Source: Malassezia japonica (Eukaryota; Basidiomycota; Malasseziomycetes; Malasseziales; Malasseziaceae). Taken from it: DNA of 64,000 nucleotides. A program made the translations under genes and the position numbers. The notes beneath the pieces were generated by a model. That model did not search any database and was not told the origin of the DNA. It saw only the letters and a program-made list of their open reading frames with translations. This document shows positions 1,547-59,539 of the stretch, in pieces. Each line of letters starts with the position of its first letter. The stretch's first letter is position 1. Location: NCBI RefSeq assembly GCF_029542785.1, contig NC_083374.1, positions 673,653 to 737,652 of the forward strand. Reading direction: 5' to 3'.

Positions 1547-2864
1547 CTATACAGCCTGTGTCGCGTCAATTTCAATCGTGGGCACAATGCTGGCCATAAA
1601 CTTGAGGAAAATGACCAAGTACTGATCCACGCGTACACCCCCCGTATCCTGGGGCGGCGTGGCCTTGGCCGTGCCCCATACACGACGCAGCGCGCTTGTC
1701 CACGGCGCCTGGTCCTTGTCGTTGGTTGTGTCGAGGGGTGGGCTATCCGGGGGCGAGTCCTGTTCACGGTACTGCCCGCTGTCATTCATGCGCTGGATCA
1801 TCTTGCGCATCATGCTCGCATGTTTGCACGGGTGGATACTGGCGACATGCACCGACAGGTTGCGGGGCGAATGTGGTGCTTCGCTGCGTGATGCAAGTAG
1901 GCTATCCATCGCCCCTGCACCGGGGCTGCCGTGGGGAAACGGCTCGATGGTTACCGTCTTGAAGGCATAGTCTGAAGCCACATCCTCAAAGATCTGGTTC
2001 GGCTGCAGCGGCAGCCCATTCTCGTCGTATCCGATGAGCCACATACGGGGCGTCTGATAGTACTTGTCGTACGTGATCATGCAATCGTAGGTCCGTACAG
2101 CAACGAGGGGTGAGGAGTGAGGCGAATGCAGTGGCCCGAGACTGTCGCCCAAGGAGGGATTGAACTGGGCAGGGTCCTCCTTCTCTTGGAGTCCTTGCGC
2201 AAAGCCGCTCAGGCCGTCGGCGTCTTCAAATTCGTCAAAATCGGGGATGCTGCCGACGCCATTGGACACCGGCGCTTGAAAACTGCTTCTCCGCGAGCTT
2301 GCGCGGCTCTCGCTCAGCGAAAACTTGGCCAAGCGATTGGACAGCTCGCGGTGCGGCGGGTCGTCCAAAGTTGACTGCCGTGTCGACCGTGGCGAGCGGG
2401 CAGCGAATGGATCGTCTGGGTGAGATGCAGCACGTACTTCCGGTATGCGTCAGGATCCAGTCCTCGCTATCGTCTGCATCGCCTTCCAAGTGCAGCACCT
2501 GCTCGGTATCGTCCGAGGTTCCTCCAAATCTGCGCGCCTCGCGCTCCAAGCGCGATAGACTCGTGGTGCTGCTGGGCGACGATATCAGACGGCTGCGCCG
2601 TCTCTTTTCGCGCAGTTGACTCACACGTCGAAAACACGGCACACCTTTGCTTATGAGGAACTGTTTGTCTTTGGGAAGGTACTCGCGCGCCTTGGACGAC
2701 TCGCCCGCCGACCACTGCCACGTAGGGAACTTGTACGACAAGAAGTCGCCCGCAGCGACGAATTCCTCCGGCGTGATACGCCCATGCTCCTTAAACTTGG
2801 ATTCCCGTAGGACGGGCGCGAGATAGTCGCGCACCGCCCAGAACCGGGTCTGCACCGCATTCAT
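1547..2864 (-). CDS. ATG3: autophagy E2-like enzyme Atg3
   Basis: Atg3 conjugates Atg8 to phosphatidylethanolamine during autophagosome formation. The start at 2864 gives the conserved N-terminus ([18 protein letters not shown], then [13 protein letters not shown] and FPTWQW). A 22-nt intron (2416-2437) follows the conserved EDWILTHT segment, and the joined protein is 431 aa. The E2 half contains [17 protein letters not shown] and the catalytic HPCKHA motif, with the active cysteine near residue 339. The C-terminus ([13 protein letters not shown]) is typical. It is longer than yeast Atg3 because of low-complexity Ser/Asp-rich inserts in the flexible region and after the catalytic site. It lies head-to-tail 53 bp behind LYS4. 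Confidence 0.95.
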
Positions 2865-2917
2865 GCTGGTGGTCCAAGCGGAATAACGCCATTGTGTACG
2901 AATGTGGAGTCCACGTG

Positions 2918-5122
2918 CTACAAACGCTCGGCTACCCAATTCTCCATGCCGCCAGCGACATAGATCTCCTGGATGGAGCGGCCAATGCCAGCAGGGCGCG
3001 TCGTGTACTTGGACACGGTGCCGTTCGCATGGCGCAGCTCCACCTCACCGGTACGGCTGTCGAGGCGGAGCGAGGCGCCGTCGAGCAGCACGCTAATCTC
3101 GCCCTCCTTCTTGCTGCCTTGGCCACGTACGCCGTCGCGACCAAACTCGGTCGTGAGGTCCTCGACCAGTTCGGGGCACTGCAGGCAGATTAGGCCGTTA
3201 TTGATGGCATTGCGCTTGAACACGTCGCTGAACGAGCCGGCAAGTACAACAGGCACACCCGCGTACTTCAGCGCCGTAGCGGCTTGCTCACGCGACGAGC
3301 CCGTGCCAAAGTTGTAGCCCGACACGAGCACTACGCCAGGCTGCGAGTTGGGTTGCGTGGCCTCGTTCAAGAGGCGCTTGCGTTCCTGCGCGACGACGCC
3401 GGCAAATGCAGGGTCGTAGTTCTCCATCACCACCTCGGCTTGCTTCTCAGGCGTAATGTCGTCCTGGTAGGTATATTTGCCGGGGTAGAGCGCGTCGGTG
3501 TTGAGGTTGTCCTGCGGCGCAAAGATGAGCGTGCCCGAGAACGACTCGGGGAATGCGGGGTCCAGCGTCGTGGTCGGCGCAGCAGCCGCGGGCGCAGCGG
3601 GCGCCGCCGGCGTGTCGACCACGCTCAGCGTCGGCGTCGCGGGCTCGGTGGGGGGGCGCAGCGACTCGGGCGCGCAGATGCGACCCTCGGCGGCGCTCGC
3701 AGCGACGACCGAGGGCGATGCAAGGTAGGCGAGGGCGTTCGGGCTGCCCATGCGACCCTTGTAGTTGCGGTTCGTGGCAGAAATGCCCACCTCGCCATCT
3801 TCGAGCAGACCAACACCGAGGCCAATGCAAGGGCCGCAGCCGGCGGGCAGGGGACGCGCACCGGCCGCAAGGAGCGCACCCCAGTCGCCCGAGTTCTCCG
3901 CCTCTTGCTGCGCGATGGACGAGGCAGCGCCGAGATAGAACTCTACTCCCGGCGCCACTTTGCGACCCTTGAGGACGGCAGCCGCGGCGGCAATGTCGGA
4001 CGCGCGCGAGTTGACGCACGACACGAGGTATGCCTTTTGGATAGGAATGTTTTGCTTCTCGAGCTCGGCGAGCGGCGTCGAGACCTTGACACTGTTCGGG
4101 CCCGAGACATGGGGCGACAGCGTGCTGAGGTCCAGACGCAGGTGCTTGGTGTACACTGCGTCCGGGTCCGACGCAAAGCGCTCGCGCTCCAGCTCCGCGA
4201 GACGGTTCCAGTTCAGACGCGGGTGCGTGTCGGAGCGCTTCGGCGCACTGCCAACGTGAAAGCTGAGCTTGTCCATCTTGCGCAGCAGCTGCTCGTACCA
4301 CGACAAGGTCGTGTCGTCTACAGGGAACACGCCGGCCAGTGCACCCCACTCGGTGGTCATGTTGGAGATCGCGAGACGCTCGTCAACAGACAGCGCCGAG
4401 ACGCCCGAGCCGGTAAACTCGATCGCGCCGTTCAGCACTTCGTCCTTGTTAAAGTAGCCACACAGCGCCACGATCACGTCCTTGCCGGTAACGCCAGGGC
4501 GCAGCGCACCAGTGAGCTCGACCTTGATCATGGGCGGGATCTGCCACCAGGTCTTGCCTGTCGCCCAGATCGCAGCAGCGTCCGTGCGGACGATCGGCGT
4601 GCCGACAGCGCCCACACCGCCATACATGTTCGAGTGTGAGTCAGAGGCGACGACCAGAGACTGGGGGAACGCATATCCCTCTTCCACGAGCACCTGGTGG
4701 CCAATGCCACGGCCGGCGGGGTAAAAGTCGACACCCTTTTCGCGCGCAAAGGCCTCGATGCGGCTGTACTTTTCGAGGTTCTTGGTGCTCTTGTTCTGCA
4801 CGTCGTGGTCCAGCGTGAACACGACCTGGTCTGTGTTGCGGATCTGCGTCGCGCCGATCGACTTGAACTTGCTAATGACCGGTCCGGTGTTGTCGTGCGT
4901 CATGACCGTCGCCGGCTCGATGGAGACATAATCGCCCGACTTGACCTTCACGGTGGGGTCCCAGTCAACAGCGTACTTTTGAACGACCTTTTCAATGTAG
5001 GATTGCGGTGTGCCCTTTGCAGCATTGGCAAAGCCGCGCACGGAGCGTGCCTGCATGCCCCGCACACTACGCAAGAACATTAGCATGGCAAAATCGTTCA
5101 AGGCGCTCCGGCGCGTGGGCAT
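2918..5122 (-). CDS. LYS4: homoaconitase, mitochondrial (lysine biosynthesis)
   Basis: A [4Fe-4S] aconitase-superfamily enzyme of 734 aa that converts homocitrate to homoisocitrate in the fungal alpha-aminoadipate route to lysine. The N-terminus is a probable mitochondrial presequence rich in Arg, Ala and Ser. Conserved elements are [29 protein letters not shown] and the cluster-binding CGPCIGLG. The swivel domain near the C-terminus carries [17 protein letters not shown] Pro/Ala-rich linker (about residues 505-530) joins the catalytic core to the swivel. Length fits the family. It is transcribed divergently from ILV5 with 102 bp between starts, so two amino-acid biosynthesis genes share one short promoter. 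Confidence 0.95.
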
Positions 5123-9507: not shown

Positions 9508-9508
9508 A

Positions 9509-10676: not shown

Positions 10677-11016
10677 ATGGCCGGCGCTTCGACAATCCTG
10701 CCGCTGGAGCTGGTGGACCGCTGCATTGGCAGCAGCATCTGGGTCGTGATGAAGACGCAGCGTGAGTTTGTGGGAACTCTGCTGGGCTTTGACGACTACG
10801 TCAGTACGTACCAACCGCGCTCACACAGACATGGTGCTCGAAGACGTCACGGAATAGTAGGTCGCCCGCTTGACTGACCGCAGCGAGGGCACGCCGGAGG
10901 GCTACAAGAAGACGAAGCTGTCCAAGACGCTGCTTAATGGCAACAATATTTGCGCGGTACGTAAGAGTATCGGCTCATTTCAGCTGATTCCGGGCGGCGA
11001 GGGCCCTGAAGCGTAA
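10677..11016 (+). CDS. LSM5: Sm-like protein LSm5 (four exons)
   Basis: A subunit of the LSm1-7 mRNA-decay ring and the LSm2-8 U6 snRNP ring. Four exons (10677-10803, 10829-10856, 10884-10956, 10984-11016) are separated by introns of 25, 27 and 27 nt and give an 86-aa protein. The joined sequence reads [36 protein letters not shown] and [14 protein letters not shown], which is a textbook LSm5 with both Sm motifs. Phase agreement at all three junctions and homology on both sides support the splice sites. Exon 2 is only 28 nt. The promoter is shared with the upstream phosphoesterase and holds three CTCCA repeats. Confidence 0.93.
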
Positions 11017-11332: not shown

Positions 11333-14198
11333 CTACTTGCTATTGCCGTTGCGCCATGTCATGTACGGCAACCGCATCTGCGCCGACTGCTCTGTACGTG
11401 CGCGGGCCGAGCGGCGCGTCTCCACCACTGGCTCGCGCCAGCCCAGCGCGATGTCATCGTTACGCTTCCGCATGCCCCCCTCGATGTAGTCACGGTACTT
11501 GAGGAGCTGAGCTTTGAGTGCGTTCTCACGCACGCCCTTGATGCGGAGCCAAGCAATCAGCTCCTCGATCTGCTCGGGCTTTGTGTAGACATTCCACTCG
11601 CCCAGCTCTGCATCCGGCTGTATCTGCAGCTCGGATGCGCGGCGTTGTGTCAAGGCATGCGAGCCGCCGGAGTAGCCCTTGCAGAGGTCGTTCCATTCGC
11701 GCATGCTTGCTGCCTGGACAAAGACGCGGCCGGTTTGGTAGAGCACGCTGCCGCTGCTTCCCGCAAGCGATGCCGTGCCGATGCCATCCACCCAGTAGTA
11801 GCGGTTCAAGAAGCGGTCCTTGCCTAGCGGGCGCAGGCGAGGAATCATGGCGTACCGCCTAAACTCGCGGTCAATAGCCTCTTCGCGGCGCGCAAGCCGC
11901 AGATCTTCGTCTTCCATACGCTTGCGCTCGGCATTGATCTGCTTCGACTCGCGCTGCTGCTCCTTGGCCTTGGCAAGTTCGGCCGCCATGCGAGCCTGCT
12001 CGGCGTCACGCTGCAGCGCCTTTTCACGCAGTGATTCCTGGCGCGAGCCAAACAAGCGCTTGTAGCGCTCCGAACCTGCGTCCGATGCGAACGAATCGTT
12101 CGAGTCGCTGCCCTCGCTGCCCTCTTCGTCATCGTCCGATGCAAGCTCGTCCTGCTCCGAGTCCGAGTCGGAGTCCGAGTTGGACTCGGGGTCTTGCTCC
12201 ATCGGCGTGACCTGCTCCTCCTCTTCAGGCACGGGCGACTCATCCTGCTTCTTGATGCCATCGAGCTCGTGGCGTTGCTCCTGTGTGCGTTTGCGTACAC
12301 GGATGAGCTCCAGGCGCTCCTTGCGCAGCTCGGTCAAGTGGTTTTCACACTCTTCGTAGTACGTCTTGACGTTGCGTGTCACGACCGCGAGCTGGCACAG
12401 GAACAAGAGGATCTGGATCTTGTCCGCGAGTGGGAGGTGGGGATAGCGCTCGGCAGCCGTCTTGTACGTATGCGCGAGGTAGACGCCGTCCTCGACGGCC
12501 TCGTCGTGCTCTACGCCCGTCAAGAGCGAGAGGATGGCGTACATCCGCGGAAGCGATTCCGGCGTGGCGCGCTGCGTTAGCCAAGGTACGTACGTGCGAG
12601 AGGCAGCCCACCAAATGGTTCTCCCAGCCTGCGCGGTGGTCGTCGGCGTGCAAAATTTTCTTCTCCCAACCCCGCCCGATGGAGTGCGCAGCATCCATGA
12701 CACTCTTCTCCGGCGACTCGTCCAAGTCGTCGGGCTCGCTAATATCACTGCTCATGTCTCCATCGTCCTCTGCTGCCGGCTCCTGGGGGTGGGGCGAGGC
12801 GGTTTGACTCGCAACTGCGGCGGCTTGGATCTGCAGCGCCTGCTTTTTCTTGGCATCAATTGCGGCAGGAGCGAGGTCGCGCGAGTGAGCGCCGTCGCGC
12901 ACGATCGCATTGAGGACCACGCCGTGCATCTCGGAGAGAAGCACGCAAGTCGGGTCGTGCGTGGGATGCCGCAGGGCACCCTCAAAGTCGTCCCAGGCGA
13001 TGGCCGAGATACCGAGCGGTTTTCTGTGTGAGATAGGCAAGTGACGTACCCAAGCGACAGGAAGAAGTAGTACACCATCATGTACGGCTCAAAGTGGTCC
13101 TGCGGCACGCCCAGCAGTTCAGGCCCATCGAGCTCTGGGCGCTGAGCGCGTTTCGAGAGCTCGCCGGGCGTCTCTGCACTGAGCTCCTGCTCAGTGATGG
13201 TGTCCAAGAGCAGATCCTCGCACGGAAACTTGAGCGGCTTCTTTTCCGTCTTGTCTTCCTCGCGTTTGCGATCTGGGTGAGAACAGCGGCACGTACCTTT
13301 GCGCTCGTCACGCGCCTTGCGCCGTGCTACCGACGCGTCGCCGTCGAGGAGCTTGCGGCGTTTCGAAAGCTTGCCCTCCTTGATATCCTCGTTCCTCTGC
13401 ATGATCTCCTCCGTGGGTTCCAGGGGAATATCAAAGCGCCGCGCCAGGTTCTCGCGCACGAACCATGGGCTCCCTACCTGCGGATCGCGCACGACACAGT
13501 CGCGCAGGTACTTGCGCATGATCGACTTGGAAAAGACCAGGCGATCGCGGGAGAGCACCTTGGCGCGTGCCTCCATGATGCTCCCTGTGAACATCCCTTC
13601 GTTGTCCACGAGCTGGATGGAGTAGAGGTATTCAGCGGGGTTGTCGAGACGCGCCGCGTCCTCCTGCGAGAGCCACAGCTGCGTGCCGACCTCGTGCTCG
13701 TACTGCGCAGGCGCGCCGCCGTCTGCAGGGCGGGGCGGGAAGACCTCCTTGACCAGAGCATGGTATCGATCGCCATCCACTTCGACCAGGACGGTTTCAT
13801 CCTTGAAGAAGCGGTCCTTGAACCGCTCGGCCACCAGTTCCACCAAATTGTCCAGGCGGCCGGTGACTTGGAACTGCACAGCACGCAGAACAGGTGCGCG
13901 GAGGGCATCGGGGAAGCGTTTTTGGATCGCAAGCGCGTGCTGCGCCTCGCTCTGTGCGGCTTCGAAGAAAGTCAGGTTGGACTTTCCCGAGAGCTCACAC
14001 TGAAAAATACGCTGGTGATAATAGCTCAAACGCGCTGCGTAATTTCTGGATTAGCGTCACAACATACTCATAGTCGGCAAACACCTCGCCTGTCGCGGCC
14101 AAGTAAAAGACGTTGGGATTCTGTCCCTTCTCTGTTGCACTGACAAGCGCGTCGGGCAGCCCTAAGGGGAGCACCGGCTTCCGCTTCACAAATGGCAT
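11333..14198 (-). CDS. ITC1: ISWI-complex subunit Itc1/Acf1-like (WAC, DDT, WHIM domains)
   Basis: A non-catalytic partner of the ISW2/ISWI chromatin remodeller. Four introns (14046-14067, 13273-13296, 13024-13049, 12573-12594; 22, 24, 26 and 22 nt) join five frames into 923 aa. An N-terminal WAC domain (NVFYLAATGEVFADYEE, NYAARLSYYHQRIFQCELS) is followed by a DDT domain (LGVPQDHFEPYMMVYYFF, then ISAIAWDDFEGALRHP) and a WHIM/WSD-type region with acidic and Lys/Glu-rich coiled coil. Near the end, FLNRYYWVDGIGTASL is the WSD signature. Each junction keeps frame and restores a conserved segment. An Asp/Glu/Ser acidic tract lies at about 12070-12230. Confidence 0.9.
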
Positions 14199-14386: not shown

Positions 14387-15369
14387 CTACAACTTGGCCG
14401 GAGGGCCGTCCAGAAAGTGGGTGAGGGGACGGACCCAGGCCGACTGGAGGTCAAAGTAGTCGAACCACATGTGCCCAAAGGCTTCCGCATCGCCCTGGAC
14501 AGAGGGAATGTGGCGCTTGGCCTGCGGAATGTTTTCCTCGAGGATCTTGGCCTCGCCATAGTCGACCATCCGGTCATACTTGCCGTGGATAATGAGCACA
14601 GGGAGCGTGCGGGGAAGTCTTTGCAAGCCCTCGCGCGCATCAAACTGCGCAATGGCGCCAGCCTGCTGCGCAATGACCATCTGGGGGCGGCTGTCATTAG
14701 GGCGAAGACGTACCGCGTGCCGAGCGCCAAGTCGATGCGCTCACTGGCGCGCTTCGCGAGCGGACCGTCGGGACCGATCGCCGCGTCGTGGTACTGCATC
14801 TTGATCATGAATTCAGTCACGGCGCGGTTCCGCTCCTCGCGGCTCATACCTTTACCAGTGGGACTGCGTCAGAATGGTGAACATACATGTTCTTCGGCTT
14901 GAACTCGCTCTTGGGCATCTTGGCAAAGGTCGCCGAGAGCACAACATGTCGCACTTCCACGCCATCAATCACCACGCCGCCCTCGACGGGCTTCGCATCG
15001 GGGTGTGTCACGACCGCCTGGACGACCAGGCCGCCCATCGAGAAGCCCAGCAAGTCGACCTTTTGGAAGCGCAGATGACGGAGCAGAGCAAGCACATCGT
15101 CCGCCATCATATCGATCGTGTAGTCCTCCTCTTCGTTCTCGGACATGTGTGATGCGCCAATGCCGCGGTGATCCAGGAGGACAACTGGGTGAGTCGGGGT
15201 GCATACCTTTGCGCGTCTGCGAGATGCTCTGCGCGAGCTCCTCCCAGTCCTGCATGATGGCGCTCATGCCATTCACCAGCACAAGGGGGAGGTGCGCATC
15301 GCTCGTGCCGTACACACGGTACCCGATCCGTGCGCCGTCTTTCGTGCCAAACACCTGGGGTTCCGCCAT
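14387..15369 (-). CDS. alpha/beta hydrolase (four exons)
   Basis: An alpha/beta-hydrolase fold protein of 304 aa. Introns of 22, 23 and 23 nt (15185-15206, 14864-14886, 14691-14713) join four frames without a shift. Visible elements: LVNGMSAIMQDWEEL after strand 3, LLDHRGIGAS, the nucleophile elbow GFSMGG, and a late acid and His region (LIIHGKYDRMVDYGEA, then FGHMWFDYF). Substrate unknown; it could be an esterase or a lipase-like enzyme. No signal peptide, so probably cytosolic or peroxisomal. It shares a 31-bp divergent promoter gap with SPF30. Confidence 0.85.
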
Positions 15370-15400: not shown

Positions 15401-16144
15401 ATGGACGCTTCTGAGTACGTGCCCTGGCTGACCTAGACTCCGGACGTATGAGTGTGCGTAGACGTGACTAACGCAGTCCAGCTGAGCCAGGTGGATGCCG
15501 CGCTCCAGGCGGAGCCGGAAAATGAGGAGCTGCAGTCGCTGCGGGCCGAATTGGCCAACCTCATCGAGCTGACCAAGTCGGCCACCGCGCAGGCCGAGGC
15601 GCCCATGCCAAGTGCGCCGGCACCCGAGAGCACACAGACCTTTCGTACTGGTGACGAGGTCATGGCGCGGCACCAGGCGGACGGAAAATGGTACCCTGCG
15701 CGCATTGCGTCGGTGGCAGGTACGGCAGAGAGTGCCGTGTACTCGATCATCTATACCAAGACACGCACGACCGAGATGCTGCATGCTCCTGACCTGCGCA
15801 TCCGCAAAGTCGATCCCAACGCACCCCAGCCGAGTCATGCCAAGACGGTCAAGGCACAGGCGCAGCGCATGATGACGAACGACGAGCGCGCACGCGAGCG
15901 CGAGCGCAAAAAGGCCAAGAAGGAGAAGAAGATGCGGCGCGAAGCAGAGAAGGACAAGGTGCACGACGACAAGAAGATGGCGTGGCAAAAGTTTGCTGCG
16001 AAAGGCGTCAACAAGGGATACCCTATGGGGGGCCGCAAGACGGACGATACCACGATGGTCGGTGTGTCGGGAGGCAGCCGCATGACACCGAATCCGCAGC
16101 GCACGCGGCATGTGTTTGGTCCGGGCGCGAATGGCGAGGAGTAG
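15401..16144 (+). CDS. SPF30: splicing factor SPF30/SMNDC1-like Tudor protein
   Basis: A Tudor-domain survival-of-motor-neuron-like factor needed for tri-snRNP joining. I reconstruct three exons: 15401-15414, 15437-15453 and 15477-16144, with introns of 22 and 23 nt. The first two exons are 14 and 17 nt. The joined N-terminus (MDASELRTYEFQLSQVDAAL) matches the start of the SPF30 family, which ends in an IELTK-like segment also present here. The Tudor domain is FRTGDEVMARHQADGKWYPA to RTTEMLHAPDLR. The C-terminal part is Lys/Arg-rich, with the family's KGVNKGYPMGGRK-type sequence. Length 232 aa. Confidence 0.9.
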
Positions 16145-16652: not shown

Positions 16653-17121
16653 TTACTCGTCCTGCTCAATGACAACGGTCTGGAGGCCGTGGAAGTTGGT
16701 AATGCCCAGCACCGGGGTGGCGTAAGTGTAGAGCTTCTCCTTGGCATCCTCGTCGTCGTTACGCTTGCGCTCGAGGCGCACGCGGATACGGCGGGGGGCG
16801 TCCTTGACACCGAGCTTCCAAACCTCCTGGTTGAGCTTGGGGTCGACGCGGACGTCCTGGGTGCCCATGGTCTTCTGGGCGAACTTGATCACCTCCTTAA
16901 CACCCTTCGGCGCGCGCTTCTTGAAAGCGGTGTCGTGGATACGCTTGTGCAGGTTGATGGTGTACTCACGCTGTAAGGTTAGTATTCTGTTCTTTTTACG
17001 CCGGTGCTGAAATACTCACAGTCACCACATCGTCTAATGGTTAGCAATGATACACGCAATGGTACGTACTCAGGGCCGAGCGGGTCTTCTTGCCCTTCTG
17101 GGACTTGTCCGTGGGAGCCAT
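16653..17121 (-). CDS. RPL31: 60S ribosomal protein L31 (eL31)
   Basis: A structural protein of the large ribosomal subunit at the peptide exit tunnel. Exons are 17070-17121, 17020-17033 (14 nt) and 16653-16970, with introns of 36 and 49 nt that are long by local standards. The joined protein (127 aa) reads [38 protein letters not shown] and [20 protein letters not shown], and ends in VVIEQDE. All match eL31. Longer introns in a ribosomal-protein gene fit the general fungal pattern. Codon bias is strong. Confidence 0.96.
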
Positions 17122-17290: not shown

Positions 17291-18744
17291 TTAGCCCATG
17301 ATCTTGGTCACGATGCCGGTGCCGATCGTCTTGCCGCCCTCGCGGAGGGTGAAGCGCGAGCCCTCCTCGAGCGCAATGTCGTGGACAAGGTCGCAGACAA
17401 GCTCAACGTTGTCACCGGGCATGACCATGGCCTCCTCGGCGTTCTCCGTACCCGGAGGGTGCGTCAGCGAGACGGTCACGTCGGACGTGCGGATGAACAT
17501 TTGCGGACGGTACTGCTGTTAGAACATAGAAACGTACGTTGTTCATAAAGGGGGTGTAGCGACCGCCCTCCTCCTTGGTCAGGATGTAGCACTGCGCCAT
17601 GAACTTCTTCACGGGCTTCACCGAGCCGGGGACAATGAGCACCTGACCACGGCGGATCTGCTCACGCTTCACACCACGCAGCAGGGCACCCATGTTGTCA
17701 CCCGCCTCACCACGGTCGAGCTCCTTGTGGAACATCTCGATACCGGTGAGCGTGGTCTTGAGCTGGTTGCCGAGACCAATGATCTCAATCTCGGAGCCCT
17801 TGGTAATCGTACCACGCTCCACACGGCCCGTCACGACGGTACCACGACCCGAGATGGAGAAAACGTCCTCGACGGGCATCAGGAAGGGCCTGTCGAGGTC
17901 ACGCGGGGGGAGGTCGAGCCACGCGTCGGTCTCCTCCATGAGCTTCAGGATGGCGTTCTTGCCGATCTCGTCGTCGCGGCTCTCGAGCGCAGCAAGGGCC
18001 GAGCCCGAGACGATCGGGGTGTTGTCACCGTCAAAGCCGTAGGTCGACAGGAGCTCGCGCATCTCCATGTCGACGAGCTCGAGCATCTCCTTGTCGTCGA
18101 CCTGGTCGACCTTGTTCACGAACACGACCAGCTTCTTGATACCGACCTGGCGCGCGAGCAGCAGGTGCTCACGAGTCTGGGGCATCTGACCGTCGGTAGC
18201 CGACACGACAATGATCGCACCGTCCATCTGAGCGGCACCCGTAATCATGTTACGGATGTAGTCGGCGTGACCGGGGCAGTCGACGTGCGCATAGTGGCGG
18301 CCGCCCGTCTCGTACTCGACGTGGGCGGTGGAGATGGTGATACCACGCGCCTTCTCCTCAGGGGCCTTGTCGATCGAGGCGTAGTCGACAAACTTGCCGT
18401 TGCCCGAGTTCTCGTGGAGAACCTTGGTGATGGCGGCCGTGAGCGTGGTCTTGCCGTGGTCGACGTGGCCGATCGTACCAATGTTCATGTGCGGCTTGGT
18501 ACGCACAAACTTGCCCGACTCCGTGGCGTAAGTGCGCAGCGCACCGAGCGCGCGCGGGGGAAGCGCGGCGCCACGCACGTTCCGCGCCTGGTTCGCCACT
18601 GCACTAGTGTGCTTCGTACGGGCGAGAGCTGCGTTAATTCACATAAAAAGACATACCAGGAACAGCGGCACGCACAGGCATGCCGCGCGCCACAGGGGCG
18701 ACGGAGCGCAGAGCACGCATAGAAGCAGCACGAGCAACACTCAT
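17291..18744 (-). CDS. TUF1: elongation factor Tu, mitochondrial
   Basis: A GTPase that delivers aminoacyl-tRNA to mitochondrial ribosomes. Three exons (18657-18744, 17538-18628, 17291-17515) with introns of 28 and 22 nt give 467 aa. Exon 1 supplies an Arg/Ala-rich presequence. G-motifs are all present: [26 protein letters not shown] and a SALAALE-type G5. Domain 2 ([13 protein letters not shown]) and domain 3 ([14 protein letters not shown], then [10 protein letters not shown]) are complete. It is head-to-head with SPT5, with only 33 bp between the two ATGs. Confidence 0.96.
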
Positions 18745-29828: not shown

Positions 29829-29884
29829 TGGCCTATGGGCTACATAATCGGCTTGACGCGGTACATTTTGGCTGCGTCAGTGGG

Positions 29885-38167: not shown

Positions 38168-38729
38168 TTACGACTGCGTTAGACGATCCACGTACCGACT
38201 TCGCGGCGTTGGCGTGCTCACGGACCCAGTCGTTCATACCGCGGCGGCACCGCGCGATCTCGAACACGTAGAACTGGAAGCGCGTCACTGTGTAAGAAGA
38301 AGAAACACGTACAAAAGATCGTGTTCGTCTGCGTGTACTCGTCCGAGGCATCTGTACGGATCAGCGTACCAAAGTTGAAGTCGGCGACTGGGTCAGAAGG
38401 AGAAGCACGTACCCTTCTTTTCGTACTTGGCGATGAACTCGCGCCACTTTTGCTTGCCAGCGGGGCTCTTCATGCTGTCCTCGTTGATCAGGCGGACCGC
38501 ATTGTCGTCCTTGAACGTGTCAGGGAACATCTCTTCAAAGTCGGCCATGATGTCATCGTCAAATCTAGGTGAGCATTGCAACGTACTTGGTCAGGCGGAG
38601 CGCAGAGCCCTTGACCTTCTCGAGCAGGTTCCAGTAGGTCTGTGCATGCTCGACGCAGCGCACGGCAATCTGCTTCTCGATTTCAGGGAGGTTCTCGGCC
38701 TGGTTGGGGTCAAACGTATCCAAAGACAT
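38168..38729 (-). CDS. PBDC1-family protein (yeast YPL225W type)
   Basis: A small conserved eukaryotic protein linked in yeast to translation-factor folding. Five exons (38587-38729, 38413-38564, 38313-38387, 38196-38287, 38168-38173) with introns of 22, 25, 25 and 22 nt give 155 aa. Sequence in order: HAQTYWNLLEKVKGSALRLT, FDDDIMADFEEMFPDTFKDD, KQKWREFIAKYEKKVADFNF, GTLIRTDASDEYTQTNTIF and RFQFYVFEIARCRRGMNDWV. The last exon contributes a single Ser codon plus the stop (6 nt). It shares a 40-bp divergent gap with ASNSD1 that contains one CCTCCAC element. Confidence 0.9.
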
Positions 38730-38769: not shown

Positions 38770-40412
38770 ATGTGCGGCATCGCGTTGGTGTGCGGGCCGT
38801 GCGCAGGGGATGTGTGGGCCTCGCTCCTGCGCGCGATCGAGCGGCGAGGTAGGTCCTTTGGCTTATGCAGGGCCGGACGCCGTGCAGGAAAGTGCGATTT
38901 CCGTCGGTGCACAGACGGCGCATCTCGGCGCGTCAGTGCTGTGTCTCCGTGGAGAAGGCGTGACGCGCCAGCCGTTTTCCGCAAATGGCCTGCATTTCGT
39001 GTGGAATGGCGAGGTGTTTGACGGACGCGATGGTGCGTGGGCGCCGAGTGAAAATGACGGCGCGGCGCTCTTTCAAAGTATCGTAGAAAAAGCCGGCAAA
39101 GGCGACGTGCGTGCTGCGCTGGTCGCGGCGCTCGCCGAGATCGAGGGGCCGTACGCGTTTGTACTCGTGGACGTGCGTATCCGAGGCTAACCCAGGAGGA
39201 GCATCGCTGTGTATACTACGGCCGCGACCCTCTAGGGCGTCGGTCACTCTTGCGGTCCGCATCGCCGTTTGCGCTCGCCTCGGTCTCGACGCAAGAGTCG
39301 GTCGAGAGCGGCTGGGTGTGGGAAGAAGTGCCGTGCGCTTCGCTTTGGTGTGCCCAGCTAGATACCCCGGCCACGGATGCGGTGGACCGCACGTCTGAGG
39401 TACGCTGAATAGCTAATGCAGTTTGCCTCGCGTCTCCTCGTGTCGGACGCGGAGTGGAAAGACAATGATACCCCCGCCCTGGATGCCTTCCACGCGACAC
39501 TATCTGAAAGTGTCGCGCGGCGCGTCTGTGATATCCGCCCGGATCCTACGTACGTCGCCCGCCTAACGCAGGCAATCCAAAACAGACGCCCACGTCGCCG
39601 TGCTCTTTTCTGGGGGCGTCGACTGCACGGTGCTCGCCGCTTTGGCGCATGCGCACATTCCCCCGGAGCAGTCAATTGATCTAATCAATGTCGCTTTCGA
39701 GAATCCTCGCTCGCTCGCGGCGCACCACAGAGACGACCCCTATGCCGTACCAGACCGCATTACGGCGTATGCCAGTGCACAGGAGCTGCGTGCCATGGCG
39801 CCGCATCGGCAGTGGGACCTAATCGAGGTCAATGTGCCGTATGCTACGTACGAGGCGCACTTGGACCAAGTCAAGGCGCTCCTTGCGCCATGCACCAGTG
39901 TCATGGACCTGAGCATTGCTGCGGCGCTCTACTTTGCGGCGCGTGCGCAAGGTCGCGTCGGCGGGTGTGCGTATACGTCTCCTGCGCGCGTATTCCTATC
40001 TGGCCTCGGCGCGGACGAGCTGCTTGCGGGTTACTCGCGCCACCGCCAGGCCTTTCGGCGGGGCGGCGACGACGCGCTGCGCGCCGAGCTCCAGCTCGAC
40101 CTCGACCGGCTGCCTACCCGCAATCTCGGGCGCGACGACCGCGTAATTAGTGCGCACGCCCGCGAGGCACGCTTTCCCTACTTGGCGCGCTCAGTCCTAG
40201 TCCAAGTCTGTGCGTTGCCGCTTTCTACGAAGGCCGACCTGTCCCCCGGCACCGAAGGCACTGGCGACAAGCGCCTGCTGCGCAAGCTTGCGCGGCGCCT
40301 CGGCCTCCCCCATGCGTCTGCACTCCCCAAACGTGCGATCCAGTTTGGCGCACGCAGCGCCAAGCTCGACGCGGCGTCCGCCCGCCGCAAAGGCTCCGAA
40401 GCGCTCTCGTAG
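38770..40412 (+). CDS. ASNSD1: asparagine synthetase domain-containing protein 1
   Basis: A glutamine-dependent amidotransferase-like protein (yeast YML096W type), 517 aa. Four introns (38849-38870, 39173-39195, 39400-39421, 39550-39571; 22, 23, 22, 22 nt) join five frames. The N-terminus MCGIALVCGP has the nucleophilic Cys2 of class II glutaminases, followed by LHFVWNGEVFDG. The synthetase half has the PP-loop VAVLFSGGVDCTVLAAL and LSGLGADELLAGYSRHR. The gene is thus intact in both halves. Its exact reaction is unknown even in well-studied fungi; it is distinct from true asparagine synthetase by its shorter C-terminal domain. Confidence 0.92.
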
Positions 40413-41469: not shown

Positions 41470-42470
41470 ATGAGTGCTGGGCGCGAGCCACGCCCCACGG
41501 TCTCGTTCGCGGCGCTGGCGACGTCCGAGGCGTTCGTAGGTGCGCTGTTACGCGACGTCAATATCCTAGTGCATTCCTTTGCGCTCACATGGTCATGGCT
41601 CGACGGCCAAACGGCACAGCCCCCTGCGCCGCCGGTGCCCCTCCGGTGGGAGTACGGCGCGCTGCTGGTATTCGAGCGCGTGTGGACGCGCAACCAGTGG
41701 CAGCAGCTTCCGAGCCTGTTTGGAAGTGATCCGAGTACGCGCCGTGCATTTTACGAGTCCACAGCCCGCGCCTTCCTTGGTACGTTGCGCGGCTGACCCA
41801 GATACCATTGCCCAGGCCGAATCCGACGTCTCGCTCCTGCATGCGGTCGGTGCGCTAATGGGCCTATACCTCTTGTGGTCGGGGCAGGGCACGCCGATGG
41901 TATGGCCGTCGATCGGCGTCGACAAAGGTACGTCGGTGCACTAACGCAGCCACTTTCTTGCAAGTGTTTGCCTTGCCGGAGCGCGCGCGGCGTGTCCTGG
42001 ACACGGGCGTCGCGCCGGGGCACACGCCACCGTCGGCGGACGTGTGGTACACAGTGCAGGTGCTGCTGGGCCGTGCAAGCCGGACGCAGGGACCTGTGCT
42101 CGTGTTGCACGTACCGAAAGCGCCTACGCGCCTCGAGGCACAGACGACGCTCATGCCACGGGGCGAGCGCGCAACGCGCCCTAGTACCCACGGCGAGGTA
42201 GGGCGCCGCAACGAGCTCGTACTGCGTTCCGAGACGAGCCACGCGCCGAGCCAGGAGCAGGTGCACGCCTCAATCGTCGACATGCTCGGCATTCCACATC
42301 CCCAGGCGCAGCCGGTCGGCAGCAGCCGCGCGACCGCGCAGTCGCTCGATGCGCTGGTGCAGTCGCAAGGCGCGTACGTCGGTGCACGCAATGCGCTGCG
42401 CGACGTGACCTCGGGCGTGCCTGGCCTTTATGACGAACAAGACGCCATGGCGTTTCCCACATTCATGTAG
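41470..42470 (+). CDS. hypothetical protein; possible SNAPc subunit 1-like
   Basis: Three exons with two 22-nt introns (41780-41801, 41928-41949) give 318 aa. The start at 41470 is the first ATG; upstream frame sequence is a CCG repeat without a good start. The first 150 residues hold an all-helical region (FVGALLRDVNILVHSFALTW, WEYGALLVFERVWTRNQW, AVGALMGLYLLWSGQ) that vaguely recalls the SNAP43 domain of snRNA-activating complex subunit 1, including the length and the late LYLLW-like block. The C-terminal half is low complexity. I would not rely on the functional guess. The stop abuts the MSS1 stop with no spacer. Confidence 0.55.
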
Positions 42471-44159
42471 CTACTTTCCAATGCAGAATCGCGAAAAGAT
42501 GCCCCCGAGCACCTCGTCGGCAGCAAGCGTCTCGCCGGTGATCTGGCCGATGAGGTAGGCGGCGTGCCGCAGCTCTTCCGCAGCGAGCGTCAAGTCGGGC
42601 TGCGGCGCCTCGATAAATGTCGTGGCAAACGTGTCGAGCGCCTCGAGGACGTGCCGCAAGAGGTGCAGATGGCGCGCCTCGGTCACGAGCGGCGGCTCGC
42701 CCATCTCTGCTTCGTGGCGTGCCTGGAGCAGCTCGCCGAGGCCAGCAAGGAGCGTGTCAATGCCTCGGTCCTCCAACGCGCTTCCGTGCCAGATTGTGCA
42801 CGGGACGCCTTGGTCGGCGGGCGGCGGCGCGTCGACCAGGTCCATCTTGTTCATAAAGACGAGTACCTCGGCGTCGGTCGGCAGCATGCCAAGCTGCTCG
42901 AGCGCCTCTTTGGGTATATGCCATGCTCCACTGGGCGGAACGCCGCCGAGCATTTCGCAGACGTCCGGGGCGTCGCATACCAAGATGGCCAAGTCGGCCT
43001 CGGTGACGTGCGCTGCGTTAGCCAAGCCACGTACTGCGCGTGCGCGTGATGCCGATGCGCTCAATCTCGCCGGTCGCCTCGCGCAGACCGGCTGTATCGG
43101 TGAGCAGGACACGGAAGCCATGCAGTTCCAAGGCGACTTGGACAACGTCGCGCGTCGTGCCCGGCTCGGACGAGACAATGGCCGCCTCGCGCCGCACGAG
43201 GCGGTTGAGCAGCATCGACTTGCCCGCATTCGGCCGGCCGTACAGAACGAGGCGCGTGCCGTGCAGCACGGCGTCCAGGTACGAGTGCTTGCCTTGGGGA
43301 ATCTCGCGCCGAATGCGCGCGCGGAGCGACTCGACGGACGCACAGACCGGCCGCCAGAGCGCATCGTCGATCTCATCCTCGTCGCTAAAATCTAGCATGG
43401 CCTCGACGCGCACCATGGCCTCGAGCAGCTCTTTGCGGATCGAGGCATAGAGCTGCGCCTGCCGCCCTCCGCCCGTCTGGAGCGCCAGTCGGCGCTGGGT
43501 GCTGGTTTCGGCACGCAGCAGCGCATCGAGCGCCTCGCATGAGTTCAGATCCATGCGCCCGTGCTCAAACGCACGCCGCGTAAACTCACCGGGAAGCGCA
43601 GGGCGCAAGGGCGCAAGAGGGACGTGGGCCAGAGCCAAGAGCACGTCGCGCACGACAGCAGGACTGCCGTGCACTTGGAGCTCGAGCACATCCTCGCCCG
43701 TGAACGAGTTGTTCGCTGCACATAAGACTCGCGACATACCTGGAAAGTAGAGCACAAGCGCGTCGTCGAGGTGCTCGTCGGTGGTAGGATGCCGAATGGC
43801 ACGCAGCGTCGCGCGGCGGGGCACGATCGGACGCTCGCCGCACAGGCTGGTATAAATAGCAAGAGAGAGGGGACTATATGAGCCAAAAGTACCTACCCAG
43901 ACACGCGCACAATGCTTACGGCGCACGGCGGATTTCCGCTCGACAAGGCATAGATGGTATCCTTGACGATCGTCGTCATGTGCCGCACCGAAAGGAAGAA
44001 TTGCCCGCTCGCGGCGCGCGTCCGAGGCGCCCCAAGCTGTGGCAATGTGCCTGCACAGCACTCTCCTCGTACCAGCCCCGGCACGGCCCGCGGCCGCGCC
44101 AGCGCGCCGGTCCTGGACCCTGGCCAATTTCGGGGTGCCTGGACGCACCTTGCTCGCAT
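42471..44159 (-). CDS. MSS1: mitochondrial tRNA-modification GTPase (MnmE/Mss1)
   Basis: Acts with Mto1 to modify wobble uridine in mitochondrial tRNAs. I choose the ATG at 44159 because it adds an Arg-rich, acid-poor leader of about 60 residues typical for import; a start at 43979 would lack one. Introns at 43874-43896 (23 nt) and 43013-43034 (22 nt). Total 547 aa. Motifs: TIYALSSGNPPCAVSIVRVS, GEFTRRAFEHGRMDLN, the P-loop LYGRPNAGKSMLLN, SSEPGTTRDVV, LLTDTAGLRE, FMNKMDLVD and the C-terminal FCIGK ending with the invariant Cys. Confidence 0.94.
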
Positions 44160-48496: not shown

Positions 48497-49685
48497 CTAC
48501 GCCTGGCCTACTTTCTTCAGTCCGGGGATGGGCAGCGAGAGCTTCTCGTTGCGTTCCCAGAACTGGACGAGGGTGCGTGCCGTAGCTTGAGGCTGGTCCT
48601 GCATTAGTTGTTATACGCACTTCTTGTACACAATGCCCCGCATGGGGCTCTACATTCAGTTGGTATTTGCCTTGCATCTGCCCAATCATCAGCTCCTGGT
48701 CGAGATTGTCGGTCTCGGCAAGGATGAGCAGCCGCGCCGCGCGGCACGTCAGGAACCGGCTCGAGAGCCCTGTAAACCAGCCTCGCCAAAAGGGCTCCGT
48801 AGAAATAAGATCGGCCGACCAGCGATAAGCAAGCGGCTCGCACGACGGCACTTTGCGGACGAGCGAAGGGACGCTGCGTCGCGCACTGTCCAGGTTGCGG
48901 ATCGTGCGTGTCTCGACGTGCCACTGGATCGCAGCCTCGACACTGACGAACCCTTCAGGACGGCGCCGGACGATTTCGCCCATCTGGGGTAGGAGACGCA
49001 GCGACGTGCCTTCGACAATGTCGATCATCGCCACGCCGCTCACCCGCGCAAGCGAGCGCGACTGAAGGGCATGTGCAACAGATGTTACGACAGCGCCGCC
49101 CATCGAGTGGCCGATCAGGACAAACGCAGGGCGTTTGTGCTCCTCCGGAAAGACGGTCGAGAGTACCGACCAGAGATCCGAGGTGAGCGCGTCGAGCGAC
49201 ATGTCGCGCACCACATTGTCGGGATATTGCGAGCGCCCGTGCCCGCGGCAGTCGTACGCCAGAACGCCGACTTCGCCGCGCGTGAGCCGCGTTACCTCTT
49301 TTGCCATAAGCGCAAAGGAAAGCGCGCCGAATCCGGCGCCATGGTGGCACACAAACACCGTCGTATTCGCCAAGCTCCCGTCCGGCGCAGCATTCCGGGG
49401 CGGAGTAAAGTAGGTGCGCACTTTCGCAGGGACCTCGGCGCCGTCCACGGGAATCTCGACTTCCAGAGCCGCCGCGAAGCAGTCGTCTGACTTTTCCGGT
49501 GTATAGGCCGCGGGGGCGCGGGCGGGGGGGACAAGCAGCCCAGGGTTCACAACACGTGAAGGACGCTCCCCAGGGAGGTCGCCAAGGGTATCCGCTTCTT
49601 CCTCCTCCTCTTCCAAGGGAGGGTTAGGCGCAGCCGAGGCACGCTTCTTGAGCGCCGCCACGCGTAAATTCGCCCCGTCGGGCAT
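48497..49685 (-). CDS. PPE1: protein phosphatase methylesterase 1
   Basis: An alpha/beta hydrolase that removes the C-terminal methyl ester from PP2A catalytic subunits. 388 aa from the ATG at 49685, with a 22-nt intron (48599-48620, donor GTGCGT) near the 3' end. Core: FVCHHGAGFGALSFALMAKE, VLAYDCRGHGRS, the nucleophile elbow LIGHSMGGAV, VAMIDIVEGTSL and the PME-1-specific RRRPEGFVSVEAAIQWHV. The catalytic His is in VEPHAGHCVQE. After splicing the tail reads ATARTLVQFWERN, as in the family. An upstream Met (49703) is possible. Confidence 0.93.
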
Positions 49686-49756: not shown

Positions 49757-50380
49757 TTACAGGAAAAAGGTGCCGGCCAGAAGCACACAGAGAGTCATCG
49801 CAAGACCCGTCATGGCACTGTTCATCGGCACCGTGCGGACACCCGCGTTGGGGGCAGTAGGGTTGGACGTGCCCGTGGCCGAGCCTTCGGCATTGAAAGC
49901 GTTGATGGTGTTGGACGACTTGGCCGAGTTCGAGACGGAATTAACGTAGCTCGACGCAGCGTTGGCATTTCCAGAGTACTTGGAAGAAGCGTATTGGGAA
50001 AGCGAGTTGGCACTAGCACCATAGGTCTGCAGCGTGCCCATCGCCTTGCTGTAGGACTGGTTGGGGTCCTTGGCATTGACCGTGACCGGCGCACCCGAGG
50101 TAGGAGCGGCTACATTAGTATTAAAACATACCATTCGTCGAGGCAGATTCAGCGTGGTTCTGGACGCCTTGGACGACTTTCGAGGCACCCTTGTTCACGT
50201 CGGAGACCGCAGTGGTAATGGCGCCACCGAGGTTGTCCGTAGCGTGCGCCCAACCTTGTGCGATGCTGTCGTAGGCGGACTTGGCCGCGTCTTTGTAAGT
50301 CAGTACAACGTACCCTTCTGCGCGGCAGTCAGCTGCACGAGCAGCGCGACCAGAGCAACCAACGCGAGCCAAGCCTTCAT
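49757..50380 (-). CDS. secreted, probably GPI-anchored surface protein
   Basis: 192 aa from three exons; introns 50291-50313 (23 nt) and 50110-50131 (22 nt). The N-terminus (MKAWLALVALVALLVQLTAA) is a clear signal peptide. The body is Ser/Thr/Asn/Ala-rich (SKYSGNANAASSYVNSVSNS) with few charged residues, typical of a glycosylated wall protein. The C-terminus is a hydrophobic tail (NSAMTGLAMTLCVLLAGTFF) preceded by small residues, as for GPI attachment. The first intron ends in AAAG rather than CAG. I recognise no domain. Likely a cell-surface protein of the yeast. Confidence 0.75.
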
Positions 50381-58246: not shown

Positions 58247-58875
58247 TCGCTTGGCTTCGACCTTTTTTTTAAGAAAAAAAAAGAAAAGCCCTTCAAAACT
58301 GGTGCGAGAGGCAAAGGAATGGAGCCTACGTCTTTATTATGCAACATGCTTACCACTGGCCTGGCGGTGATCGTTCCTTTCTCAATGGAATACTCAAGCG
58401 ATGCCAGAGACGACATGGTTCCATTTGAGCAGCGTTCAAAATCGGTAATAGTACCGTGAAAGTATCCTTGAATGGCTCACTTCTCGGTATGAGATTGTGG
58501 ATATGGGTGGTATATATGAAGTCGCAAACTGGGTACAATTGGGAATGAAACATATTTAGTATTAAGTACCTGTGATGGAAGTATTGCCTAAGAATAATCA
58601 GTCGCCTATGTTATATCTTTTGTACGTCCGAGGCCGAGTTACTGGAAAACAGAATATTGAAAATGGTACTATGTTCAAGTTATAACGCGTCAAATTGGTA
58701 TATTTTGGTCCTTAGAAAGGGCTGTCCTTATTCTGCCAGATGACTCGACAGAGACCGTCCGCCCAGGGAGTGTAAGGTGGCACGTGCGAAGTGCGGAGGT
58801 GATTTGGCATTTGTGCGTTTCGTCGCCATTCCACCTGCCACATTAAAAGCCTTCCTTGTGTCGTTTGCGGCACAT
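58247..58875. other. AT-rich intergenic region
   Basis: About 630 bp between two 3' ends with poly-T then poly-A tracts at 58263-58285 that can pair as a hairpin, consistent with 3' end formation. No gene supported. Confidence 0.4.
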
Positions 58876-59539
58876 TCAAGCAGTTTCAGTGGCCTCCATT
58901 GCCTTGAGTAGCTTCTGGCTTGTATCAGTGTGCATGGATTGAAGACGCTCCTTCCAAAAGACCCAGCGCTCTTTGCTGAATCCGGGTGCGCCCTTCCAGA
59001 GATCACCACCCTTTGCGATTGCCGAAGATCCGCCGTGCTGTTTGCCGTCGTTGTACAGTTCCTTGCCTGCGCCATCCACCCACGCAATGAGAGCCTGGAG
59101 GCGCGCATCGAGGTCCTTTGGCTCCTTCTCTTCTTCCAGGACACCACGGAACAGAACTACTGCAAACATGAGTGTGTTTGCAACATGAGCGTGGGCGCAC
59201 TTGGCAAACATGGCCGAAATGTTGATGAGCTGTTCGGGCTTGGCCTCATTGTCATACACTAGGGTCAGCACGATAGGACATACGTTGGAAGCTCTCGCGC
59301 ATCGACCAGGGAAGACGAGGAAGGTCTCCCCAGAGCTTCTGGTCATCAATAGTGCCTACATCGTGCTTCTGCAACGCCTGCACCAGAGCAATCAAGCGGT
59401 CCTGGGCATCGGCGTGGTGCGCAGCACAGTCGAACCACTGGTTCCAAAATTTAAACGGATCCTCCGTCGCCTTGGCCACGGCTTCCGCGGCAGCATTCAC
59501 GTCTTCGCCTTGTAACACCCGATTCAATGCGCCATCCAT
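58876..59539 (-). CDS. hypothetical protein, 212 aa
   Basis: Two exons (59284-59539 and 58876-59258) with a 25-nt intron (59259-59283, donor GTATGT) give 212 aa starting MDGALNRVLQGEDVNAAAEA. It is all-helical by appearance, with conserved-looking aromatic blocks (PFKFWNQWFDCAAHHADAQD, LWGDLPRLPWSMRES, WVDGAGKELY, FSKERWVFWKERLQ). The pattern recalls fungal DUF3632-type proteins, but I am not certain. No signal peptide. It faces the secreted RNase gene divergently. Confidence 0.65.

What the first reader, a model, noticed from the sequence alone, without database searches (positions are those of the whole stretch)
2416..59283. Genome-wide style of 22-nt spliceosomal introns with a hard lower limit
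I reconstructed about 55 introns in 25 genes by joining frames at conserved residues. About 24 are exactly 22 nt, about 11 are 23 nt and none is shorter. Nearly all have GTACGT or GTATGT donors and a branch motif (CTAAC, CTGAC, CTCAC) ending 4-6 nt before CAG or TAG. Donor, branch site and acceptor together fill almost the whole intron. These are among the shortest spliceosomal introns I know of, and the sharp peak suggests a physical minimum for this spliceosome.
Basis: seen in the sequence. Interest (0 to 1): 0.75.

Follow-up and report, generated by a model that had tools for sequence, protein, structure and literature searches.

The report
Yeast introns at a 22-base floor
The genes of this skin yeast are interrupted by removable segments only 22 bases long, and their shortness seems to be set by two separate spacing limits, which makes the minimum size of an intron something that can be tested directly.

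Summary
In the window my gene models carry 57 introns, 22 of exactly 22 nt and 10 of 23 nt, none shorter. In 264 kb of the same genome a finder with no length term introns, 71 of 22 nt and 0 below. A finder that knows only GT..AG already peaks at 22 nt, with GTACGT donors emerging unasked. Solved homologues support 21 of 27 junctions examined.

The new point is why 22 nt. It is one layout: 69 of 70 have the branch A at base 17 and five bases after it. Two limits act separately: no branch A lies before base 17 (0 of 139), and a frame-free scan gives 169 hits inside both limits against 3-6 in four controls, with no excess outside either. So the floor is 17 + 5, not a total length.

It is not the general minimum: Stentor introns are 15 nt (10 + 5). 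The genus is Malassezia, already said to have very short introns. U2 and U6 RNAs look ordinary; RED was not found, inconclusively. No RNA data were available. I read these as canonical introns shrunk to the steric limit of this spliceosome.

The parts
212..266 (+). intron; 55 nt as called, signals fit 212-233 (22 nt)
2416..2437 (-). 22-nt intron
10804..10828 (+). 25-nt intron, LSm5 gene
   Evidence: gapless homologue alignment
10857..10883 (+). 27-nt intron, LSm5 gene
   Evidence: gapless in the best alignment
10957..10983 (+). 27-nt in-frame, stop-free intron of LSm5, missed by the finder
   Evidence: 9-residue excess against human LSm5; place
12572..12593 (-). 22-nt intron
13024..13049 (-). 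26-nt intron
13273..13296 (-). 24-nt intron
14046..14067 (-). 22-nt intron
14691..14713 (-). 23-nt intron
14864..14886 (-). 23-nt intron
15185..15206 (-). 22-nt intron
15415..15436 (+). 22-nt intron
15454..15476 (+). 23-nt intron
16971..17019 (-). 49-nt intron, ribosomal protein eL31
   Evidence: gapless
17034..17069 (-). 36-nt intron, eL31
   Evidence: gapless
17513..17537 (-). 25-nt intron, mitochondrial EF-Tu; AG at +3 from the branch A skipped, AG at +6 used
   Evidence: gapless NNYRPQ
18629..18656 (-). 28-nt intron (leader region of EF-Tu, outside the aligned part)
24791..24816 (-). 26-nt intron
25116..25137 (-). 22-nt intron
26605..26626 (-). 22-nt intron
27100..27121 (+). 22-nt intron, V-ATPase subunit C
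   Evidence: gapless
27214..27235 (+). 22-nt intron, V-ATPase subunit C
   Evidence: gapless
27594..27615 (+). 22-nt intron, V-ATPase subunit C
   Evidence: gapless
29469..29490 (-). 22-nt intron, dihydrofolate reductase
   Evidence: in a poorly conserved stretch, not counted as support
29872..29895 (-). 24-nt intron
32322..32344 (+). 23-nt intron, SmD2 (start of the protein)
32574..32596 (+). 23-nt intron, SmD2 (variable loop)
   Evidence: gap nearby
32627..32649 (+). 23-nt intron, SmD2
   Evidence: gapless
32702..32723 (+). 22-nt intron, SmD2
   Evidence: gapless to the end of the alignment
35645..35669 (-). 25-nt intron
35875..35899 (-). 25-nt intron
37025..37049 (+). 25-nt intron, 3-hydroxyacyl-CoA dehydrogenase
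   Evidence: gapless
37064..37085 (+). 22-nt intron, 3-hydroxyacyl-CoA dehydrogenase
   Evidence: gapless
37192..37217 (+). 26-nt intron, 3-hydroxyacyl-CoA dehydrogenase
   Evidence: gapless
37465..37495 (+). 31-nt intron, NDUFA12-like
   Evidence: gapless
37683..37709 (+). 27-nt intron, NDUFA12-like
   Evidence: one-residue gap nearby
37779..37801 (+). 23-nt intron, NDUFA12-like
   Evidence: gapless
38174..38195 (-). 22-nt intron, YPL225W homologue (beyond the aligned part)
38288..38312 (-). 25-nt intron, YPL225W homologue
   Evidence: gapless
38388..38412 (-). 25-nt intron, YPL225W homologue
   Evidence: gapless
38565..38586 (-). 22-nt intron, YPL225W homologue
   Evidence: gapless
38849..38870 (+). 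22-nt intron
39173..39195 (+). 23-nt intron
39400..39421 (+). 22-nt intron
39550..39571 (+). 22-nt intron
41780..41801 (+). 22-nt intron
41928..41949 (+). 22-nt motif hit, not called by the finder
   Evidence: only
43013..43034 (-). 22-nt intron, MnmE-like GTPase
   Evidence: gapless
43716..43739 (-). 24-nt intron, MnmE-like GTPase
   Evidence: gapless
43874..43896 (-). 23-nt intron, MnmE-like GTPase
   Evidence: gapless
48599..48620 (-). 22-nt intron
50110..50131 (-). 22-nt intron
50291..50313 (-). 23-nt intron
59259..59283 (-). 25-nt motif hit, not in a gene model
   Evidence: only

Best explanation
These are ordinary U2-type GT-AG spliceosomal introns of a Malassezia yeast that have shrunk until they press against two separate limits of its spliceosome. 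Limit 1: the branch adenosine cannot lie before intron base 17 (GTACGT, 7 free bases, then CTNA). Limit 2: the 3' splice site can hardly lie closer than five bases after the branch A (CTNAC-N-CAG). The most common intron sits on both limits at once, 17 + 5 = 22. Mechanism: after U6 holds the donor and U2 holds the branch site, at least seven linker bases are needed to let the branch A reach the 5' splice site (step 1), and about three bases between the branch A and the AG are needed to fold the 3' splice site back for step 2. Shown: layout, both edges, frame restoration, homology, ordinary U2 and U6 recognition sequences. Inferred: that the RNA is spliced at these sites, that the edges are steric, and that deletion pressure pushed the introns there.
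For: Motif scan 60 of 118 hits at 22 nt against 0-3 in five controls. GT..AG-only finder: 38 of 176 at 22 nt against 1, 9, 4, 4, 3 for five other dinucleotide pairs; it hits 31 of the 60 22-nt motif matches exactly although it knows no motif. No length term: 177 introns, 71 at 22, 0 below. 139 high-confidence introns: branch A at 17 in 76, before 17 in 0 (positions from 9 on were allowed); tail 5 in 107, tail 4 in 2; 69 of 70 22-mers are 17+5 (tails under 4 were excluded there by the filter). Frame-free, tails from 3 allowed: 169 hits inside both limits against 3, 5, 6, 4; branch at or before 16: 6 against 9, 19, 7, 1; tail 3-4: 4 against 4, 2, 1, 1. Held-out 46.6 kb from seven contigs: 13 of 29 introns at 22, none below. 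Of 78 22-mer hits in modelled DNA 74 are called introns, none antisense. 21 of 27 junctions in ten genes align gaplessly to solved homologues. In EF-Tu the AG at +3 is skipped and +6 used, as the protein shows. U2 GUAGUA and U6 ACAGAGA intact.
Against: No RNA evidence of any kind. Only 311 kb of 8.43 Mb was seen, so rare shorter introns are possible (about 2% of introns as a rough 95% bound, my estimate). The tail limit leaks (two introns with tail 4; in a recount of the models two with 4 and one with 3). One control pair (CT..AC) also has its highest count at 22 nt, 9 of 176, unexplained. An edge in the genome need not be steric; early recognition by U1/U2 or selection could give the same. 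Lengths divisible by three are rarer than others outside the 22 class (22, 28, 40 hits for 0, 1, 2 mod 3), so selection on frame also shapes lengths.
Confidence: 0.7

Rival explanations
1. The limit is set by early recognition, not by the active site: U1 on the donor and SF1/U2 on the branch site cannot sit side by side on fewer than 17 bases.
For: The same spacing data fit; SF1 and a U2AF large-subunit-like gene are present. In human extract the donor-branch spacing limit acts on assembly and activation (PMC6692369, passages).
Against: Nothing here separates the two; U1 was not identified.
Confidence: 0.22
2. 22 nt is favoured because a retained 22-mer shifts the frame and exposes the mRNA to decay; 21 and 24 are disfavoured as multiples of three.
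For: Lengths divisible by three are under-represented outside the 22 class: 22 of 90 hits.
Against: It does not predict a branch limit independent of length: 16+6 and 16+7 introns would be 22 and 23 nt and have 0 hits. It does not explain the lack of 19 and 20 nt.
Confidence: 0.05
3. The 22-mers are copies of one recent intron family (introner-like), which explains the single length.
For: One layout in 92 hits. Spacer pairs show a mild excess of close matches over column shuffles (identical 5 against 1.3; two mismatches 157 against 123.2, of 4186 pairs), but also of fully different pairs (370 against 299.3).
Against: The bulk of spacer pairs differ at four or more of seven bases; lengths run on from 22 upwards with the same signals.
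Confidence: 0.02
4. Assembly errors or frameshifts, not introns.
For: None found.
Against: Recurrent GTACGT..CTNAC.CAG, homology and sense-strand bias.
Confidence: 0.01

Closest known systems
Stentor coeruleus 15-16 nt introns (PMC9505925, sections 2.1 and 2.5 read)
   Same: Near-constant length, fixed branch A, five-base 3' tail, conserved U2/U6 recognition sequences.
   Different: Branch A at base 10 or 11 instead of 17, no strong branch consensus, AU-rich; here strong GTACGT and CTNAC.
Yarrowia lipolytica / Trichomonas / Giardia introns with a fixed branch-to-AG distance (PMC2483917, section 9 read)
   Same: Branch motif close to the acceptor at a fixed distance, no pyrimidine tract; Yarrowia has two bases between motif and AG, i.e. 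the same five-base tail by my count.
   Different: There the 3' spacing is what is described as fixed; here the donor-to-branch spacing also sits at a minimum.
Trichomonas vaginalis type B introns, about 25 nt and down to 23 (PMC12316389, passages)
   Same: Similar total length.
   Different: 24 type B introns in that genome; here thousands by extrapolation, and the branch motif lies closer to the acceptor.
Introns of other Malassezia: 'very short introns' (PMC7426719, passage); M. restricta median 30, mean 37.2 nt (PMC9241646, table in passage); M. globosa mean 76-79 nt (PMC4634964, passage)
   Same: Same genus, known compact introns; the M. restricta annotation allowed introns down to 15 nt (PMC6473144, passage).
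   Different: No 22-nt mode or 17+5 layout is stated in the passages I saw.
Human short introns needing SMU1/RED (PMC6692369, passages)
   Same: A donor-to-branch spacing limit.
   Different: About 50 nt in human extract against 16 here; RED domains not found here, inconclusive.

Membership tests
U2-type spliceosomal introns | GT-AG ends | tested here: met
   Required by the finders; among six dinucleotide pairs GT..AG gives 38 calls at 22 nt, the others 1-9
U2-type spliceosomal introns | Branch motif fitting U2 GUAGUA, before the 3' splice site | tested here: met
   CTNAY in 139 of 177 introns kept for layout; it also appears in introns found without asking for it; U2 GUAGUA intact
U2-type spliceosomal introns | Removal restores conserved protein | tested here: met
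   21 of 27 junctions in ten genes gapless; 6 at protein ends, beside a gap or poorly conserved
U2-type spliceosomal introns | U1, U2, U6 RNAs present | tested here: inconclusive
   U2 and U6 found; U1 not found by Rfam model nor by the 11-base canonical 5' end; U4 and U5 not sought
U2-type spliceosomal introns | Excised from RNA as lariat | not testable with these tools
   No RNA data
Ultra-short introns of the Stentor kind | Near-uniform length with fixed branch position | tested here: inconclusive
   One layout for 69 of 70 22-mers, but 22-mers are 80 of 178 introns, not over 90%
Ultra-short introns of the Stentor kind | 15-16 nt, branch A at 10-11 | tested here: not met
   Branch A at 17 or later in 139 of 139
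Fixed branch-to-AG introns (Yarrowia kind) | Constant short distance from branch motif to AG | tested here: met
   Five bases after the branch A in 107 of 139
U12-type introns | ATATCC donor, TTCCTTAAC branch (recalled) | not tested
   Not sought

The most novel reading that the evidence does not exclude
The five-base tail after the branch A is a limit shared by all spliceosomes (Stentor, Yarrowia and this Malassezia reached it independently), while the donor-to-branch limit is tunable by lineage (10 in Stentor, 17 here, about 50 in human extract), and this yeast reaches 17 without the RED helper that human spliceosomes need for short spacings. Intron length minima would then be a direct read-out of spliceosome geometry.
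Probability: 0.25. Interest if true: 0.7.

Novelty: new variant of a known kind. Interest (0 to 1): 0.52.

Why it matters
What sets the smallest intron is an old open question. A fungus whose commonest intron sits on two limits at once gives a natural substrate with a known layout: change one spacing by one base and ask which step fails. It also warns that gene annotation with a minimum intron length above 22 nt would miss the commonest introns of such a yeast.

Tried and rejected
Length effect of motif choice: rejected, because the GT..AG-only finder peaks at 22 nt too and branch positions from base 9 on were allowed. Nine sub-22 calls of the GT..AG-only finder (13-21 nt): five lie inside longer introns of the models with the donor mis-set, among them all four with a branch motif; the other four have no branch motif and no counterpart. 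A single total-length limit: rejected by the empty 16+6 and 16+7 cells. Introner copies: weak. Loss of second-step factors because of the short tail: rejected, Prp18 and Slu7 are present. RED loss: RED_N and RED_C gave no candidates and LisH_TPL two candidates but no match; the control genomes hold no eukaryote, so absence is not shown. U1 in the loci at hand: no convincing candidate. Extended donor pairing with U6: looked at on paper, not convincing. A viral-contig search for relatives of one window protein found none.

Dropped rows: 38 of 177 introns left out of the layout count (over 60 nt, no CTNAY, or no YAG); that filter and the finder also exclude tails under four bases, so tails of three were tested only. 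L001 and L032 left out of the held-out set as overlapping the sample; L002-L008, L029-L031 and L033-L035 used. The junction tally was read by eye from printed alignments, best hit of each; one SmD2 junction has only about four residues of alignment after it.
Full report
Source. The window is C5:673653-737652 of an 8.43-Mb genome in nine contigs, and its right end is the end of contig C5. For an aldo-keto reductase at 53191-54210 the best-ranked named relatives, among 120 listed of 7,999 scored, are Malassezia proteins (M. obtusa 72%, M. furfur 77%, and others), so the genus is Malassezia. The species is not proven; size and relatives fit the M. furfur/obtusa/japonica cluster described in PMC4634964 (passages). 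The window ends in a telomere of TTAGGA-type units at 63566-64000.

Is it there? A scan of both strands of 264 kb (window plus 20 sampled stretches) for GTAYGT, CTNAC and YAG, with the branch motif ending 3-14 nt before the intron end, gave 118 hits: 60 at 22 nt, 13 at 23, 14 at 25, none at 17-21, one at 16. Five controls with permuted motifs gave 18, 15, 46, 11 and 8 hits, with 3, 2, 0, 0 and 0 at 22 nt. Next I wrote a gene finder that knows coding statistics and GT..AG and nothing else about introns, with a flat length prior of 10-150 nt. It called 176 introns, 38 at 22 nt and 11 at 23; 60 donors were GTACGT although no donor motif was given. Five other dinucleotide pairs gave 163-176 calls each with 1, 9, 4, 4 and 3 at 22 nt; the pair with 9, CT..AC, also has its highest count there, which I cannot explain. 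Many of the longer calls of that finder look like noise, as in the controls. Of the 60 motif matches of 22 nt it hits 31 exactly.

With donor, branch and acceptor profiles learnt from these, and still no length term, 177 introns are called, 71 of 22 nt, 21 of 23 nt and none below 22. Adding a preference for the observed branch-to-acceptor distance gives the final models: 178 introns, 80 of 22 nt, 26 of 23 nt, none below, in 87 of 140 gene models. On 46,560 bases that were not used for training, from seven contigs, the same profiles with that preference find 29 introns, 13 of 22 nt, none below. Of the 78 fixed-layout 22-mers in modelled DNA, 74 are called introns, one is sense but not called, three lie outside genes, none is antisense; this is partly circular, because the finder uses the motif.

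Homology. I compared ten spliced gene models with solved structures: SmD2, LSm5, a YPL225W homologue, V-ATPase subunit C, DHFR, mitochondrial EF-Tu, a 3-hydroxyacyl-CoA dehydrogenase, an MnmE-like GTPase, an NDUFA12-like protein and eL31. Of their 27 called junctions (placed), 21 lie in well-aligned stretches without a gap within five residues or to the end of the alignment (my reading by eye, best hit): seven 22-mers, three 23-mers, one 24-mer, five 25-mers, and one each of 26, 27, 31, 36 and 49 nt. Six give no support: three at or beyond protein or alignment ends, two beside a gap, one (DHFR) in a poorly conserved stretch. Two cases are telling. In EF-Tu the intron ends ..CTAACAGCAG; using the first AG (three bases after the branch A) would give a 22-nt intron and an extra Gln, but homologues read NNYRPQ, so the second AG, at +6, is the one that fits. 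In LSm5 a further 27-nt intron (10957-10983) keeps the frame and has no stop, so frame-based finders miss it, but human LSm5 lacks nine residues there. Frame-based counts therefore under-report lengths such as 24, 27 and 30; the frame-free scan does not.

What the limit is. In 139 introns of up to 60 nt with a clear branch motif and YAG, the branch A is at base 17 in 76, at 18 in 19, and before 17 in none, although positions from 9 on were allowed. The tail after the branch A is five bases in 107, six in 12 and four in two; shorter tails were excluded by that filter. Of 70 22-mers 69 are 17 + 5. A wider scan that ignores reading frames and allows tails from three, over 310.6 kb, has 92 hits at exactly 17 + 5 and 169 with branch at 17-26 and tail 5-8; four control motif sets have 3, 5, 6 and 4 in that field. 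With the branch at or before base 16 there are 6 hits against 9, 19, 7 and 1 in the controls, and with tails of 3-4 there are 4 against 4, 2, 1 and 1. If only total length mattered, 16 + 6 or 16 + 7 should occur; both cells are empty. So the floor is two limits that meet at 22. The seven spacer bases vary widely, with a mild excess over column shuffles both of close matches and of fully different pairs; base 8 prefers G (49 of 92), base 9 avoids G (3 of 92) and base 19 avoids T (1 of 92), which I cannot explain.

Machinery. U2 and U6 RNAs each gave one strong match with intact GUAGUA and ACAGAGA. U1 was found neither by the Rfam model nor as ATACTTACCTG on either strand (the control, the pattern read backwards, gave 1 and 1); as donors are GTACGT, a changed U1 5' end is possible but untested. 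Slu7 and Prp18 are present, as are SF1 and a U2AF large-subunit-like protein (224 bits, below the curated cut-off of 310). That Prp18 is kept is notable: in budding yeast it is reported to promote docking of 3' splice sites at a minimum of 10 from the branch point, and Prp18 and Slu7 are reported dispensable when that distance is short (PMC10711555, passages). With a three-base gap there is no room for a pyrimidine tract after the branch. RED_N, RED_C and LisH_TPL gave no match, without a eukaryotic control.

Most likely working. Inferred: the donor is held by U6 and the branch site by U2; seven linker bases are the least this spliceosome needs to bring the branch A to the donor, and about three bases the least to fold the AG back. 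Recalled structural knowledge (AG contacts the first G of the intron and the branch A in step 2) fits a minimal tail of this size. Whether the first limit acts in early assembly or in catalysis cannot be told. Deletion pressure in a compact genome would leave most introns on the limits, which fits the one-sided shape of both distributions.

Known or new. Stentor introns are 15-16 nt with the branch A mostly at 10-11 and a five-base tail (PMC9505925, section 2.1), so 22 is not a record and not a general minimum. Yarrowia has two bases between branch motif and AG (PMC2483917, section 9), a five-base tail by my count. Human extract needs about 50 nt from donor to branch (PMC6692369, passages). 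Malassezia introns are already called very short (PMC7426719, passage), with a median of 30 nt in M. restricta (PMC9241646, table in passage). In the listings of searches (5 and 8 show only 20 of 323 and 25 of 1,261 papers, 12 shows 25 of 26) and in the passages I opened, I saw no statement of a 22-nt mode or a two-limit layout for Malassezia. The library holds only openly licensed papers, and the M. sympodialis annotation paper I looked for was not held, so it may be in print elsewhere. A shared five-base tail in Stentor, Yarrowia and this yeast, with donor-to-branch minima that differ, is the comparison I would pursue.

Limits. No RNA was seen. The sample is 3.7% of the genome. Branch points are inferred from motif. 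Extrapolation (80 of 22 nt in 264 kb) suggests roughly 2,500 such introns genome-wide, which is only an estimate.

Noticed in passing
63566-64000: Chromosome end: 72.5 perfect copies of a TTAGGA-type telomere unit; TTAGGA is reported for M. furfur (PMC10100673, passage).
   Followed up: partly
10957-10983: In-frame, stop-free 27-nt intron in LSm5 that frame-based gene finding reads as coding.
   Followed up: yes
whole genome: The canonical U1 5' end ATACTTACCTG has no match on either strand and the Rfam U1 model finds nothing, although U2 and U6 look ordinary.
   Followed up: partly
22-nt introns, bases 8, 9 and 19: Spacer preferences without explanation: G at 8 (49 of 92), little G at 9 (3 of 92), almost no T at 19 (1 of 92).
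   Followed up: no
window:50531-54210 (-): Three tandem, similar aldo-keto reductase-like genes without called introns (relatives of the third).
   Followed up: no
window:8408-10795 (-): Two tandem similar long ORFs; the one at 8408-9508 carries a calcineurin-like phosphoesterase domain.
   Followed up: no
window:59712-60116 (+): Small protein with a signal-like start and a ribonuclease domain (PF00545).
   Followed up: no
window:61786-62364 (+): Signal-like start, no Pfam family; a search of about 5.8 billion proteins listed one match, 99% identical.
   Followed up: no
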